Part shown: positions 14,318 through 22,390 of the stretch, piece by piece
Layout: the number at the start of each line of letters is the position of its first letter
How positions within the stretch are numbered: position 1 is the stretch's first letter
Source of the DNA: Pseudomonadota bacterium
Lineage (GTDB): Bacteria; Pseudomonadota; Gammaproteobacteria; Burkholderiales; Burkholderiaceae_C
Assembly: GCA_021841865.1 (NCBI GenBank)
Contig: JAKCDM010000023.1
Coordinates: forward strand, 1 to 35,209
Length of the DNA stretch: 35,209 nt
Direction of reading: 5' to 3'
Notes under the pieces: model-generated
Told to the model about the DNA's origin: nothing
Databases searched by the model: none
What the model saw: the letters and a program-made list of their open reading frames with translations, nothing else
Made by a program: the position numbers and the translations under genes

Positions 14318-17173
<2,856 letters not shown>

Positions 17174-17607
17174 GGTGAGCTCACTGTTACGCCGGGTCTG
17201 CCGGCAGGGAGTGGGTGAAGCACCATGCGCGCCCCCGGGTACCCCGCGCACGCGCACAGCGGTCCGATGACGCCTGAACCTTCGGGTACTTTAGCAGCGC
17301 TTTTGATGCAACGCAAAACACTTCACAACGCCAGAAAAACCAGATTCCTCCTTTTCTTACACGAGATTTTTGTATTTTTGTGGACGGTCGTGCTGAAAAT
17401 GAACCATAGGGTCCAAATTCCTGCCATGCCGCGTCGGCCCGATCCGGCAAGCCGGCGAGCGACACGACCGTTGCCATCGCCCCCAGGCCGCGCGCAGCGC
17501 GCCGAGCCGCGGGAACTTTGCGCGCCTCGCGCCGTCGAACGCAACAGCGCGCCGGCGAGCCGCCGCCCCCGCCCCAACCTCACCCCGCCCACCCAGGAAC
17601 CGAAGCG
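17174..17607. promoter_or_regulatory. 434-base divergent intergenic region (odhA / CVNH protein 1)
   Basis: No credible gene is present. Bases 17281-17420 are strikingly A+T-rich for this genome, with runs such as TTTTTGTATTTTTG. On the minus strand a TTGCGT (17316-17311) and TAAAGT (17293-17288) are 17 bases apart and could be the odhA promoter, giving a leader of about 110 bases. On plus, no convincing promoter for the CVNH protein stands out, although the A+T block is the natural place. Bases 17421-17590 are GC-rich and hold nothing I recognise; an AGGAA ribosome-binding site for the plus-strand gene is at its end. Confidence 0.5.
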
Positions 17608-19017
17608 ATGCCCGCACTGTCTGCCGCTTCCCGGCGCATCGCGCGCCTCCCGGCTTCATGCGCGCTGCTGTTGGCCGCGTGGGCCGCTCCGTCGCACGCA
17701 GTGACCGGTGCGGCCTATGACCGCGGCTGGGCACGCTCGAATGGCGACACCACCTACGTGGTGCCGGTCAACGACACCGGCCAGCTGATTCGCGTACTCG
17801 GCACCGACTACCGCCAGAGCTTGCACGTGCCCGAGATCGAGGCGGTGGACCTGCCGGGCGACTACGACCCGTCGCAGCGCGCGCCCGGCGCCTACGGCGC
17901 GTCGCACCCGCAGCTGGCAGCGATCGGCGCCGACTTCAGCGCGCTGTTCGCGTCCGGCGCGCCGCGCGGATTCCGCTTCAAGCCCGACGACGACCCCACC
18001 GGCTCGACCCCGGACGACGGCTGGTTCGTGGTGACCCACTACCAGACCGTGTGCGACGGGCGTGCACTGCGTTTCCGGGCAGTCGCCTGGTCCGGGCGCG
18101 ACGGCAACGACGGCCAGGCCAGCACGTCGCGCGCCGACGACGACAAGGCGCTGACGCCGATCGCGGCCGCCGCCGTGCTGGCGTCGCTTCCGCGGGGCCA
18201 GGCCAGCTACCTCGTGGGCAGATATGGACGCGCGCTGACACCGAGGCAGTTGCAGCAGGAAATCGAGCAAGGCTCGGTCGGCCCGCTGCGAATCGACTAT
18301 GCCGCGTTGCTGCCGGGGGTGGCACGACCGATCGCGATTCCCGAATTCCTGGCGCTGGCGCAGGTGCTCGACGTCGAGCACCACTTCGGCGGCAAGGGCG
18401 CGGGCACCCGACTGCACTACGTCAACTATCTCGCCGACGGCGATTCCCGGGTCACGCGGGTGATCGCGGACAACCCGATGCACCAGCAGATCGTCATCGA
18501 CGACTGCCTGATGATCGACGCCATCGGACAGGACGTTCCCTACGGCGACGACCGCAAGGGGATCGAGCACCTGGCCCCGGAGCTGGAAGACGCGGTGCTG
18601 ACCACCGTGTTCTCGCACGCGCTGCCCGGCCACGGCATCAGCGCGACGAGCACCTGCGCGTTGCGTGCCGACGACAGCGGCCGGCGCTTCGACGGCACCT
18701 GCCTCGACGCCGCCGGGAACCCGGTGCCGGCATCGCTCGACGCGACGGCCTGCACGAATGCACTCGACATCGTCAATGACAACGGCGTGCTGCGCTGCGC
18801 CGGCGAAAAGGTCCCGCGCCCCGCGGGCAGCTACCTCGAGGCCTGCAGCAACACGCAATGGGACGGCGCGACGCTGCGCGCGGGCTGCGGCCCGCGCGAC
18901 TGGCGGGTCGTCTCGACACTCGACTACGCCGGGCAATGCCGTGTCGGCTCCACCGTGAGCTTCGACTGGAGCGCGGCCCGGCTGCGCTGCGACAACCCCG
19001 CGGGCTCCGGGCGCTGA
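17608..19017 (+). CDS. secreted protein of unknown function with C-terminal CVNH-like domain (paralogue 1)
   Basis: A 469-residue protein with a signal peptide (RRIARLPASCALLLAAWAA, cleavage after SHA at about 31). Residues 32-345 match no family I know. They contain VNDTGQLIRVLGTDY, VTHYQTVCDGRALRFRAVAW and ADGDSRVTRVIADNP followed by VIDDCLMIDAIGQDVPY, all shared with the convergent gene at 19094-20485. Residues about 348-461 form two cysteine-framed half repeats resembling cyanovirin-N homology: LDIVNDNGVLRC, then GSYLEACSNTQWDGATLRAG C and STLDYAGQC. Eight cysteines (350, 365, 382, 397, 413, 427, 444, 461) suggest disulfides. CVNH domains bind sugars, so a periplasmic or extracellular carbohydrate-binding role is plausible but inferred. 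The ATG has AGGAA upstream. It diverges from odhA. Confidence 0.82.
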   Translation: MPALSAASRRIARLPASCALLLAAWAAPSHAVTGAAYDRGWARSNGDTTYVVPVNDTGQLIRVLGTDYRQSLHVPEIEAVDLPGDYDPSQRAPGAYGASHPQLAAIGADFSALFASGAPRGFRFKPDDDPTGSTPDDGWFVVTHYQTVCDGRALRFRAVAWSGRDGNDGQASTSRADDDKALTPIAAAAVLASLPRGQASYLVGRYGRALTPRQLQQEIEQGSVGPLRIDYAALLPGVARPIAIPEFLALAQVLDVEHHFGGKGAGTRLHYVNYLADGDSRVTRVIADNPMHQQIVIDDCLMIDAIGQDVPYGDDRKGIEHLAPELEDAVLTTVFSHALPGHGISATSTCALRADDSGRRFDGTCLDAAGNPVPASLDATACTNALDIVNDNGVLRCAGEKVPRPAGSYLEACSNTQWDGATLRAGCGPRDWRVVSTLDYAGQCRVGSTVSFDWSAARLRCDNPAGSGR

Positions 19018-19093
19018 GTTCGCCGCGGGCGCGCATGCCGGCGCCGCACAGGCCCCTGTGGACCCGCGACGACATGGCGTGTCCGCGCCGGCT

Positions 19094-20485
19094 TCAGGAA
19101 GCGGGACGTGGACTTTCGCAGCGCAGCTGCCCGGCGGCTTCGTCGTAGCGCAACGCCGAACCCGGGATGCAAGCGCGCGCATAGTCGATGCTGGCGGAGC
19201 GGCGGTCGTAGGTGCCGCCGCAGCTCGTGCGCAGGCTGCGCCCATCCCAGGCGAGCACGCGACACGCCTTGAGGTAGCTGCCCACCGGCTGCGCCACCTT
19301 TTCGCCGACGCACTGCAGCGCGCCGTCGGCATTCACGATGTCGGCCGCGTTGCCACAGCCACGGGCGTCGAGTACCACGTCCTTCGATCGCCCCTCGGAG
19401 TCGGGGCACGTTCCGGTGTACCGCGTCCCCGAGTCGTCCACCTCGAGCAGGCAGCTTCGGGCTGCGCTGATCTCGGGCAGGCGACGCCGGAACACGACCG
19501 TGACCAAGGCGTCGTTGGTGTCGGGGACCAGCCGGACATCGCTGTCCGACCGCGCGTACGGAAGATCCTGCGCGATGGCGTTGATCTCCAGGCAGTCATC
19601 GATCACCAGATGCTGCTCCAGCGGCGTGTCGCTGATCACCCTCGTGACCCGCGAGTCGCCGTCTGCCGAGACGTTGACGTACGACATCTGCGCACCCAGG
19701 ACCCCCATCGTGGACAACTGGGATTTCACCTGGTAATACACGGCGAAACCGAGCATCCCCAGGTATCGGCTGGCACGTACGGCTGCGGCCCGGATCGCGG
19801 TGTTCTCCGGATTGGCCAGCCAGTTGCTCTTGGACGACACCTCGACGACCTTCTGCCAGCCCATGGACTCCGAGCTGTACTTGTAGCTGATGAACAGTTC
19901 GCTGCCGAGTTCATAGGCGCCGACCAGGCCCTGGAACACGATCGGCGCGGCCACCGTGACCCCGAGCGCCGCCAGGGTCTTCGGAATCGCCTCGCCTGGC
20001 TCGTTGCCGGTCCACGCCGTGACCTTGAATCGCAGAGGCTTGCCGTTGCAGGTCGTCGCGTAATGGGTCACTGCCCGGGAATCGGCAGGCGCCTGGCAAA
20101 ACGGCAGCGAAGCGAGCGAGCCGCACTGCACACCGTAGCGATAGCCCCCGGACTTCAGCTCGGGAAAGGTCCGATCGAAGCCCAGGCCGATCGCCTTGTA
20201 CAGCGGATGGGCCCGGGTGTACGGGGTCTCTTGTCCGCGCGAAGGGCTGTAGTTGGCAGGAATGCTGGCCGGCGCAAGATCCGGCGCGTTCACCATGCCG
20301 GTGTAGTCGGTTCCCGTGACCGTGAGCTCATGGCCGGTGTCGTTGACCATGGCCATGTAGGTCGTATTGCCGCCAGACGCCCTCCCGTCGACGACCAGCC
20401 GCGACGCGGTGACCGCCTGCGCCGAAAGCATCTGGCTGGCACACAGCAAGCCCGACAAGGTGCGAACAACCGCGCTCGGGAACAT
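19094..20485 (-). CDS. secreted protein of unknown function with C-terminal CVNH-like domain (paralogue 2)
   Basis: A 463-residue paralogue of the protein encoded at 17608-19017, facing it tail to tail with a 76-base gap. The start MFPSAVVRTLSGLLCASQML is a signal peptide (cleavage after AQA, about 24) and has an excellent GAGGAGG ribosome-binding site, so the 14-residue upstream extension is rejected. Shared blocks are VNDTGHELTVTGTDY, VTHYATTCNGKPLRFKVTAW, ADGDSRVTRVISDTP and VIDDCLEINAIAQDLPY. The tail (about 343-457) has the same eight cysteines (345, 360, 377, 392, 408, 422, 439, 456), with ADIVNADGALQC and GSYLKACRVLAWDGRSLRTS typical of CVNH half repeats. Extra cysteines C121 and C130 occur only here. 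Function unknown; sugar binding is inference. Confidence 0.82.
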   Translation of the reverse strand: MFPSAVVRTLSGLLCASQMLSAQAVTASRLVVDGRASGGNTTYMAMVNDTGHELTVTGTDYTGMVNAPDLAPASIPANYSPSRGQETPYTRAHPLYKAIGLGFDRTFPELKSGGYRYGVQCGSLASLPFCQAPADSRAVTHYATTCNGKPLRFKVTAWTGNEPGEAIPKTLAALGVTVAAPIVFQGLVGAYELGSELFISYKYSSESMGWQKVVEVSSKSNWLANPENTAIRAAAVRASRYLGMLGFAVYYQVKSQLSTMGVLGAQMSYVNVSADGDSRVTRVISDTPLEQHLVIDDCLEINAIAQDLPYARSDSDVRLVPDTNDALVTVVFRRRLPEISAARSCLLEVDDSGTRYTGTCPDSEGRSKDVVLDARGCGNAADIVNADGALQCVGEKVAQPVGSYLKACRVLAWDGRSLRTSCGGTYDRRSASIDYARACIPGSALRYDEAAGQLRCESPRPAS

Positions 20486-20554
20486 GATTCCTCCTCGACC
20501 AAGGCCGGCCGGGCCAGCCTTGCCCATGAGACCCCTGGGCGACGAGAAGGTTTC

Positions 20555-20587
20555 GGGGTATCAGCGGGTTTAACCCGCCGATACCCC
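20555..20587 (-). terminator. hairpin terminating the sox operon after soxB
   Basis: GGGGTATCAGCGGG and CCCGCCGATACCCC pair over 14 bp with one mismatch around a TTTAA loop. It lies 76 bases after the soxB stop and 70 bases upstream of the CVNH paralogue 2 start. Read on the minus strand, the bases after the stem (GAAACCTTCTCG) are only mildly T-rich. It probably ends the sox transcript and separates it from the next gene on the same strand. Confidence 0.65.
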
Positions 20588-20662
20588 AGGAAATGACAAT
20601 CGGTCCGCGGCTCCAGCATGACGAATTCGGCGCTGGCCGAGTTCGTCAGCCATGACCTGCGC

Positions 20663-22390
20663 TCAGGCGGCAGCCAGCCCCGCGTTGCCGGCCACGCCGA
20701 TCAGGCGCGGCTGGTTCGGCTTCAGGGGCTTGACCGTCGGGTTGTGCTTCAGGTACTCCTCGACGATATCCCAGATCGGCGGGTTCGACGCCTGCGCCGA
20801 AGCCTGCTGCACCGGAGCCCAGCCGGCGACCTTGTAGGTCTTCTTCGGATCGATCGGCTTGCCGTGCAGGCGCATGTCCTGGATGCGGTTGCCCGACTTC
20901 TCGCCCGGCGCGCAGGCGTAGGTCAGCGCACCCACGCGAACCATGTCCCCGCCCTGCTGGTAGTACGGATCGGGGTTGAACAGGTTGTCGCAGACATCCT
21001 CCATCACCGACTTGACCGTGGCCCCGGTCATGTCGGTGAGCGTGCAGTAGGGATAGGTGATGGCCAGCTGGGTCATCAGGGCCTCGCGCGTGATCGGCTC
21101 GCCCGGCAGCAGGCTGCCGCCCCAGCGGAAGCCCGGCGAGAAGGCGAGGTCGCCGCCGCGCACCGCCAGCATGGCATCGAGCACCAGCTGGTCCCAGGTG
21201 CCGTTGAAGTTGCCGCGGCGATACAGCACGCCCTCGGTATGCCCCAGCACCTCGGTCAGCTTGGCCTCGTAGGGCGCGCGCAGCTTCCTGATCAGCGCCT
21301 GCATGTCCGCATCGGCGGGCAGCAGATTCGAGAAAACCGGCAGCAGGCGGTACTTGTAGCCCACCATCTTGCCGCCGCGCACGTCGAAGTCCATGACCGC
21401 GAGGAACTTGCCGTGCGAGCCCGCGTTGGTCACCAGGGTCATGCCCCCCGACGGACGGCGCACCTCGACCGCGACGGCCTCGCCGTCGTGGGTGTGGCCG
21501 CCGAAGATGCAGTCGATGCCGTCGACCAGCGTGGCCATCTTGCGGTCCACGTCCATGCCGTTGTGGGAAATCACCACCACCAGCTGGGCGCCCTTGGCTC
21601 GCACTTCCTTGACCACCTTCTGCATGTGGTCGGTATCGATGCCGAAAGTCCAGTCGGGCATCATGTACGCCGGGTTGGCGATCGGGGTGTAGGGGAAGGC
21701 CTGCCCGATGATCGCCACCTGCACGCCGTTCATCTGCTTCATCACGTAGTTCGGGAACACCGGATCGCCGAAGTCGGCGGTCTTGACGTTCTGCGCGACG
21801 AAGTCGATGCGACCCTTGAAGTCCTTGGAGATGATCTCCTTGACGCGGTCCTGGCCGTAGGTGAACTCCCAGTGCGCGGTCATCACGTCGACGCCCAGCT
21901 GCAGCTGCGCGTCGACCATGTCCTGCCCCTTGGTCCACAGCGACAGCGCAGTGCCTTGCCAGGTATCGCCGCCGTCGAGCAGCAGCGCTCCCGGACGCGA
22001 GGCCTTCAGTCGCTTGACCAGCGTGGCGATGTGCGCGTATCCGCCCATCGTGCCGTACTGCTTCGCCGCCCGCTCGAAATCCAGGTAGGTGAACGCGTAG
22101 GACTCGCGGCTGTCGGGCTTGAATCCCACGCGCTTGAGATAGTCGGCCCCGACCAGGTGCGGCAGGTGCCCGTTCATGCTGCCCACGCCGATGTTCACGC
22201 TGGGCTCGCGGAAATACAGCGGCTGCAGGTGCGCGTGGCTGTCGGTCATGTGCAGGAAATGCACATTGCCGGTGACCGGCGGGCTGTACAGCGCGTCGAC
22301 CTCGGCTGCGCTGGCTTCGCGCATCATCGGAAAGCCGCTGACACCGGCTGCTGCCAGCACACTCAGAAATTCGCGGCGGGTAATGCTCAT
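20663..22390 (-). CDS. soxB: thiosulfohydrolase SoxB
   Basis: A 575-residue periplasmic dimanganese enzyme that hydrolyses the sulfone group from SoxY-bound thiosulfate as sulfate. The Tat signal is TRREFLSVLAAAG. Metal ligands of the calcineurin-like fold are visible: D50 and H52 (MTDSHAHLQP), D142 (DGGDTWQGT), H173 (HWEFTYG, the SoxB signature replacing GNHE), H276 (SHNGMDVD) and H299/H301 (GGHTHDG). A 5'-nucleotidase-type C-terminal domain follows. Length is normal for SoxB. The ATG has GAGGA eight bases upstream. It is the last gene of the sox operon, and a U-tract terminator sits between soxX and its ribosome-binding site, so its expression may be set separately. Confidence 0.97.
   Translation of the reverse strand: MSITRREFLSVLAAAGVSGFPMMREASAAEVDALYSPPVTGNVHFLHMTDSHAHLQPLYFREPSVNIGVGSMNGHLPHLVGADYLKRVGFKPDSRESYAFTYLDFERAAKQYGTMGGYAHIATLVKRLKASRPGALLLDGGDTWQGTALSLWTKGQDMVDAQLQLGVDVMTAHWEFTYGQDRVKEIISKDFKGRIDFVAQNVKTADFGDPVFPNYVMKQMNGVQVAIIGQAFPYTPIANPAYMMPDWTFGIDTDHMQKVVKEVRAKGAQLVVVISHNGMDVDRKMATLVDGIDCIFGGHTHDGEAVAVEVRRPSGGMTLVTNAGSHGKFLAVMDFDVRGGKMVGYKYRLLPVFSNLLPADADMQALIRKLRAPYEAKLTEVLGHTEGVLYRRGNFNGTWDQLVLDAMLAVRGGDLAFSPGFRWGGSLLPGEPITREALMTQLAITYPYCTLTDMTGATVKSVMEDVCDNLFNPDPYYQQGGDMVRVGALTYACAPGEKSGNRIQDMRLHGKPIDPKKTYKVAGWAPVQQASAQASNPPIWDIVEEYLKHNPTVKPLKPNQPRLIGVAGNAGLAAA

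What the first reader, a model, noticed from the sequence alone, without database searches (positions are those of the whole stretch)
17608..20485. Convergent pair of secreted paralogues ending in cyanovirin-N-like (CVNH) domains
Two proteins of 469 and 463 residues, encoded tail to tail, share conserved blocks along their whole length and a C-terminal region with eight equally placed cysteines. The tail has two half repeats with (D/A)IVNxxGxLxC and GSYLxAC-xxxxWDGxxLRxxC followed by an S(T/I)DYAxxC-like end, which I read as a CVNH fold. CVNH proteins are sugar-binding lectins, mostly known from cyanobacteria, fungi and ferns. Joined to a ~310-residue secreted domain I do not recognise, in a sulfur-oxidising betaproteobacterium, this is an architecture I have not seen described. 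Possible roles include binding of self or foreign glycans, surface attachment or matrix formation.
Basis: partly seen in the sequence, partly recalled or inferred. Interest (0 to 1): 0.72.

Follow-up and report, generated by a model that had tools for sequence, protein, structure and literature searches.

The report
Secreted protein pair with lectin-like tails
Two neighbouring genes of a sulfur-oxidising bacterium encode exported-looking proteins that end in a domain related to the virus-blocking lectin cyanovirin, and they belong to a larger local family that puts this same tail on several unrelated front ends, probably to stick them to sugars.

Summary
In detail: two convergent genes (17608-19017 +, 19094-20485 -) encode exported-looking paralogues (37% identity, E 1e-90) whose tails share eight identically spaced cysteines. 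The cyanovirin-N homology (CVNH) reading is supported indirectly. Neither window protein matches Pfam PF08881, but paralogues pass its cut-off, tail profiles find cyanovirin-N among solved structures, and a half-repeat profile built without this subfamily finds two units in each. The models match CVNH structures only locally (rmsd 13.6-16.6 A).

The pair is part of something larger. The genome has 11 CVNH-tailed ORFs (about 10 loci) with four head types; relatives add more. Eight of 28 genomes of the genus carry such genes. The two sites examined lie between housekeeping genes: of 27 soxB loci, 20 have sucA on the flank, three have CVNH genes there. The ~310-residue head has no credible Pfam or PDB sequence match and was seen in 3 of 28 genomes of the genus and nowhere else searched.

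Best reading: secreted proteins whose shared lectin-like tail anchors different heads on a glycan surface. Sugar binding and head activity are untested.

The parts
17608..19017 (+). P1, 469-aa exported-looking protein: signal peptide, type-A head, CVNH-like tail
   Evidence: orthologue at the same site in G005
17608..17700 (+). signal-peptide-like N terminus of P1 (residues 1-31, ...SHA|VTG)
   Evidence: read from the sequence; no predictor was run
17701..18636 (+). P1 head, type A, no known family
   Evidence: modelled as beta - helices - beta at low confidence
18160..18357 (+). P1 mid-head stretch with the two most hydrophobic segments (residues 185-250)
   Evidence: not more hydrophobic than shuffles; helices
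18655..18798 (+). P1 CVNH-like half-repeat 1 (Cys350-Cys397)
18820..18993 (+). P1 CVNH-like half-repeat 2 (residues 405-462)
19094..20485 (-). P2, 463-aa exported-looking paralogue of P1
   Evidence: relatives in G013
20414..20485 (-). signal-peptide-like N terminus of P2 (residues 1-24, ...AQA|VTA)
   Evidence: read from the sequence; Shine-Dalgarno AGGAGG
19472..20413 (-). P2 head, type A
   Evidence: low-confidence model
19739..19975 (-). P2 mid-head stretch with the two most hydrophobic segments (residues 171-249)
   Evidence: not more hydrophobic than shuffles; helices
19310..19453 (-). P2 CVNH-like half-repeat 1 (Cys345-Cys392)
19115..19288 (-). P2 CVNH-like half-repeat 2 (residues 400-457)
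17319..20668 (.). segment between sucA and soxB that is absent in the two empty-site genomes aligned at DNA level
   Evidence: alignment to L070 (G002) breaks off at 17318 and resumes at 20669, to L074 (G026) at 17318 and 20673; counts
19030..20660 (.). P2 segment missing from G005, which keeps only the P1 orthologue
   Evidence: alignment to L067 ends at 19029 and resumes at 20661
20555..20587 (.). strong hairpin between soxB and P2 (16 pairs, -31 kcal/mol)

Best explanation
P1 and P2 are exported proteins of a lineage-specific modular family. The C-terminal domain is a divergent CVNH-type domain with four cysteines per half-repeat instead of two, and it most likely binds a polysaccharide or glycoconjugate outside the cell. 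The same tail, mostly in versions of two to four half-repeats, is joined to several unrelated heads, so it most likely acts as a shared targeting or anchoring module, and the head carries the activity. In the type-A head, beta strands are modelled on both sides of helices, which could touch a membrane or another protein. Shown: paralogy, tail homology by profile, several heads on one tail, lineage restriction in the genomes searched, presence or absence between housekeeping genes at two sites. Inferred: export, glycan binding, anchoring role, head activity.
For: Tail homology: a profile of 22 tails finds cyanovirin-N and CVNH chains (3s3y 2.4e-8, 1n02 2e-4, 2jzj 4e-4); the five closest tails alone find 3s3y at 1.2e-4; paralogues pass the PF08881 cut-off; an independent half-repeat profile gives two units in P1 and in P2. 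Shared tail on several heads: 50 ORF rows in the fetched loci, at least three of them the same gene fetched twice, with head groups that profile comparison does not join apart from A1-A2, and a beta-propeller head over the Pfam Lactonase cut-off (L033). Site pattern. Faster evolution than neighbours: dN/dS 0.22-0.41 in 6 orthologous pairs (a seventh, C118/C86, set aside as probable contamination) against 0.06 for soxB and 0.03 for sucA.
Against: Neither window protein matches Pfam CVNH (P1 tail alone). Foldseek matches to CVNH have rmsd 13.6-16.6 A and target TM 0.21-0.34, so the compact fold was not reproduced. In the alignment the cyanovirin mannose-contact positions, as I recall them, are mostly not kept. 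In P1 the tail (dN/dS about 0.87, 123 codons, few changes) is less constrained than the head (0.30), which does not fit a strictly conserved binding site.
Confidence: 0.6

Rival explanations
1. Matrix or attachment proteins: the tails bind the organism's own exopolysaccharide or mineral-bound glycans and the heads are structural adhesive domains of a biofilm.
For: Several different heads share one tail, including a beta-propeller, as expected of scaffold parts; another secreted-looking repeat protein occupies the same sucA-soxB site in G018 and G027 (judged by eye).
Against: Genes are scattered and patchy (8 of 28 genomes) and fast evolving, more like traits of interaction than a core matrix; no EPS genes were sought beside them.
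Confidence: 0.25
2. Lectin-guided membrane-active proteins: the tail finds a target glycan and the helices of the head insert into the target membrane, as in lectin-assisted pore formers.
For: Both models place helices between beta strands in the head; in 7 of 9 type-A heads the two most hydrophobic windows start at head positions 143-160 and 202-216; among the 50 listed hits of the P1 model the first outside CVNH with probability above 0.2 is the actinoporin FraC (rank 25, E 0.059, prob 0.66).
Against: Head pLDDT is mostly under 50; the segments are not more hydrophobic than shuffled composition in the window pair; FraC is not in the 50 listed hits of the P2 model; no credible sequence match of the heads to any Pfam family or PDB chain.
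Confidence: 0.15
3. The tail keeps the CVNH fold but not sugar binding; it is a disulfide-stapled cap or protein-binding module.
For: Recalled contact residues are not conserved as a set (alignment); extra cysteine pair in each half.
Against: Repetition to three or four half-repeats on different heads is more usual for binding modules (inference).
Confidence: 0.2
4. The tails are not related to CVNH; the cysteine pattern is coincidental.
For: No direct Pfam match; models do not superpose globally.
Against: Transitive profile evidence and cysteine-fixed shuffles.
Confidence: 0.03

Closest known systems
Cyanovirin-N and the CVNH family (PF08881)
   Same: Two tandem half-repeats of about 50 residues; the first cysteine pair of each half aligns with the cyanovirin pair; profile matches
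   Different: Four cysteines per half instead of two, C-terminal on a ~310-residue head, window proteins without a Pfam match, recalled mannose contacts mostly changed
Magnaporthe MoCVNH proteins (5c8o; MoCVNH-LysM 2l9y)
   Same: CVNH combined with another module in one protein; 5c8o is among the Foldseek hits of both models, 2l9y of the P2 model
   Different: As I recall, LysM sits inside the CVNH domain of a fungal protein; here CVNH is a C-terminal module of bacterial proteins with other heads
Actinoporins (FraC, 4tsy)
   Same: Weak fold match of the low-confidence P1 model
   Different: No sequence match, helices modelled inside the head, not listed for the P2 model

Membership tests
CVNH (PF08881) | match to the Pfam model over its curated cut-off | tested here: not met
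   0 families for P1 and P2 at E<=10; P1 tail 0 families. Paralogues pass
CVNH (PF08881) | profile relation to solved CVNH proteins | tested here: met
   A3 against PDB: 3s3y 2.4e-8, 1n02 2e-4; A4: 3s3y 1.2e-4
CVNH (PF08881) | two tandem half-repeats | tested here: met
   two units in each of P1 and P2 with a profile of 29 units, none from type-A proteins
CVNH (PF08881) | conserved cysteine pair at the start of each half | tested here: met
   alignment of tails and to cyanovirin-N
CVNH (PF08881) | compact strand-exchanged beta fold | tested here: inconclusive
   the first 20 Foldseek hits of each model are CVNH structures, but rmsd 13.6-16.6 A and target TM 0.21-0.34
CVNH (PF08881) | mannose-contact residues | tested here: inconclusive
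   positions recalled, read off the alignment; only the structural Asn is clearly kept
CVNH (PF08881) | glycan binding | not testable with these tools
   needs protein
Actinoporin or aegerolysin-like fold (head) | sequence family match | tested here: not met
Actinoporin or aegerolysin-like fold (head) | fold match | tested here: inconclusive
   P1 model only, rank 25, prob 0.66, low confidence
Anti-phage defence (PADLOC) or phage proteins (PHROGs) | profile match | tested here: not met
   0 families each at E<=1

The most novel reading that the evidence does not exclude
A bacterial family of polymorphic exported effectors in which one fast-evolving cyanovirin-type tail, of mostly two to four half-repeats, aims many different heads (type A being a membrane-active beta-helix-beta domain of a new fold) at the glycans of competitors, grazers or phages.
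Probability: 0.15. Interest if true: 0.75.

Novelty: new variant of a known kind. Interest (0 to 1): 0.5.

Why it matters
CVNH lectins are, as I recall, studied mainly as small antiviral proteins whose natural role is unclear. A bacterium that uses the domain repeatedly as an interchangeable C-terminal module offers natural multivalent versions (up to four half-repeats) and a genetic setting in which the domain's native ligand can be asked for. The type-A head is an exported-looking domain family with no credible match in Pfam or, by sequence, in the PDB.

Tried and rejected
Direct family searches of P1 and P2 gave nothing useful: Pfam 0 families, PADLOC and PHROGs 0, no plasmid record for P2, no viral contig for the five-protein alignment A2. 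NCBIfam gave two aminoglycoside acetyltransferase models for P1 at 17.1 and 14.6 bits against cut-offs of 290 and 320; rejected as chance. Designed PPR repeats in two PDB searches come from many weak per-repeat scores on a short stretch; rejected.

I considered a transmembrane hairpin in the head and do not claim it. Hydrophobicity of the window pair is not beyond shuffles (top and second segment: 114 and 861 of 1000 for P2; 424 and 293 for P1). Of the 9 heads only C183 and C90 clearly exceed them, for the second segment (2 and 1 of 1000).

A shared ancestral head is not claimed. Of 15 comparisons between six head groups only A1-A2 is convincing (98.2%, E 5e-14). The next best are A2-D (7.4%, E 0.0047, 40 columns), A2-C (4.9%) and A2-B (3.2%). 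The alignments are shallow.

The tree of ten type-A proteins does not settle whether P2 or P1 is closer to the G013 pair (84/86 support, long branches).

The first genome-contig scan, with P2 alone, found nothing. The consensus scan found no promoter-like and no terminator-like site in 17200-20720.

Full report
Observation. The two ORFs, their convergent layout, their exported look and the eight equally spaced cysteines are confirmed. Identity is 37% over 451 columns, E 1e-90. The gene pair lies between sucA (2-oxoglutarate dehydrogenase E1, 14318-17257) and soxB (20663-22390), in a stretch that also holds soxX, soxA, soxY and soxC.

Tail. P1 and P2 have no Pfam match at E up to 10. The test that decides is indirect. 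In the same genome several other ORFs match P2 only in the tail, at 30-40% identity. Of ten relatives scanned, five pass the PF08881 cut-off, four match below it and one has no match. In the genus the PF08881 model is over its cut-off in 7 of 28 genomes. A profile of 22 tails finds cyanovirin-N and other CVNH chains in the PDB (17 sequences at E up to 1, of which two are other molecules). The five closest tails alone find the two tandem cyanovirin dimers at 1e-4 and single cyanovirin-N chains at 0.03-0.1. Of the 22 tails, 14 match CVNH in Pfam at E up to 0.5; the first, P1, does not. A profile of 29 half-repeats from ten proteins, none of type A, finds two units in P1 (64.5 bits) and two in P2 (54.0 bits); the best of 400 cysteine-fixed shuffles scores 15.2. 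Compared with cyanovirin-N, each half carries an additional cysteine pair.

Structure. Two AlphaFold models were made from only five sequences: mean pLDDT 55.3 for P2 and 50.8 for P1. The tail is the better part (blocks of 69-88 for P2, 52-85 for P1). Foldseek puts CVNH structures in the first 20 places for both models, E 2.5e-4 to 2e-2, but with rmsd of 13.6-16.6 A and target TM of 0.21-0.34. So the local strand pattern matches and the compact domain was not reproduced. In the head both models show strands, then helices, then strands. The P1 model has the actinoporin FraC at rank 25 (E 0.059, probability 0.66); the 50 listed rows for P2 (of 232 matches) do not show it. With head pLDDT mostly under 50 this is a lead only.

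Head. Profiles of three head groups (type A, B, C) match nothing credible in the PDB (best E 0.13, 0.54 and 0.19). Of nine type-A heads scanned against Pfam, one has a single weak match (E 0.13) and eight none. The type-A head occurs in at least ten genes of three of the 28 genomes of the genus. A full-length profile in 399 genomes of the order matched, outside the window's genome, only the tail region, in four genomes of one other genus. A head profile in 369 genomes of the class matched only the window's own genome. Both surveys scored only a few candidates per genome (up to four and six), so a distant relative could be missed.

A family with one tail and several heads. The tail profile rings in 8 of 28 genomes of the genus: 11 ORFs in the window's genome, 9 in G005, 11 in G013, 2 in G026 and one each in G002, G004, G007 and G009 (my count of ORFs from the rows). 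In the window's genome the heads are of four types: A (window pair, C56 pair, C183), B (C114, C118, C134, C176), C (C203) and a beta-propeller (C192, over the Pfam Lactonase cut-off). G013 adds type D. Profile comparison does not join the groups except A1 with A2 (the propeller was not in that comparison). Tails have two half-repeats in the window pair and up to four in L027 and L041. In the other genus of the order the tail again sits on other heads (L120-L125); one of them (L120) I grouped by eye with type C.

CVNH is rare around: over cut-off in 2 of 399 genomes of the order and 2 of 398 of the phylum, the window's genome included in both. These are lower bounds: the L053 protein of G042 passes the cut-off by hmmscan but G042 shows no match.

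Where the genes sit. SoxB was found in 27 of 28 genomes. In 20 of the 27 loci SucA is on the flank; in three (G000, G005, G013) CVNH genes lie there; in four neither was seen. Of these four, G018 and G027 have a different secreted-looking repeat protein and G001 an oxidoreductase-like ORF, all judged by eye, and G019 has too little contig left. G013 has two copies in the same direction; G005 has only the P1 orthologue. The window aligns to G005 up to 19029 and again from 20661, so P2 is cleanly absent there. The C56 pair behaves in the same way next to holA: CVNH genes in 2 of 28 loci, the HAD-type gene on the flank in 22, neither seen in 4, and G000 has one copy more than G005. The other CVNH sites were not tested in this way. 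The gene names holA and HAD are mine by eye; no family search was run on them.

Evolution. Seven orthologous CVNH pairs between G000 and G005 were measured; C118/C86 (dS 0.003) was set aside as probable contamination. The other six have dN/dS 0.22-0.41; soxB has 0.057 and sucA 0.032. In P1 the tail (123 codons) has dN 0.049 and dS 0.056, the head dN 0.030 and dS 0.100; the tail numbers are small.

Mechanism. Shown: paralogy, tail homology by profile, several heads on one tail, lineage restriction in the genomes searched, clean gain or loss between genes at two sites, faster protein evolution. Inferred: export from the N termini, disulfides from the cysteine pairs, glycan binding from the CVNH relation, and anchoring from the shared tail. 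The ligand cannot be predicted, because the mannose contacts of cyanovirin (recalled, not from a call) are mostly not kept in the alignment.

Print. Searches for cyanovirin-N homolog with CVNH (17 papers), CVNH with proteobacteria and signal peptide (1), cyanovirin with Burkholderia (23, of which 15 listed), cyanovirin with acid mine drainage (0) and CVNH domain with bacteria (5) listed no paper whose title or abstract start describes a bacterial family with CVNH tails. The library lacks most subscription journals.

Verdict. The wider family is the more interesting result.

Noticed in passing
L029 (G000 C118) and L030 (G000 C114): C118 is 98.2-99.6% identical to G005 while the other shared loci compared are 93.5-97.0%; C114 has the same flanking genes. 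The window's assembly probably contains a contig of a second strain, so 11 CVNH ORFs are about 10 loci.
   Followed up: partly
L075 (G018) and L077 (G027), beside soxB: The same sucA-soxB interval holds an unrelated glycine-rich repeat protein in two other genomes, so this interval seems to be a repeated place of gene gain (by eye).
   Followed up: partly
L033, L046, L127: ORFs that look like beta-propellers and end in CVNH-like tails; L033 is over the Pfam Lactonase cut-off, L127 below it, L046 was not scanned.
   Followed up: partly
L122:3527-5818: In another genus of the order, a CVNH-containing ORF with hydrophobic stretches on both sides of a long polar region, an organisation like the G013 C52 proteins (L039) though not related by profile (by eye).
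   Followed up: no
window 20555-20587: Near-perfect 33-base palindrome between soxB and P2 (-31 kcal/mol), no T run; its 15-base core was found only in loci of the window's own genome among those held.
   Followed up: partly
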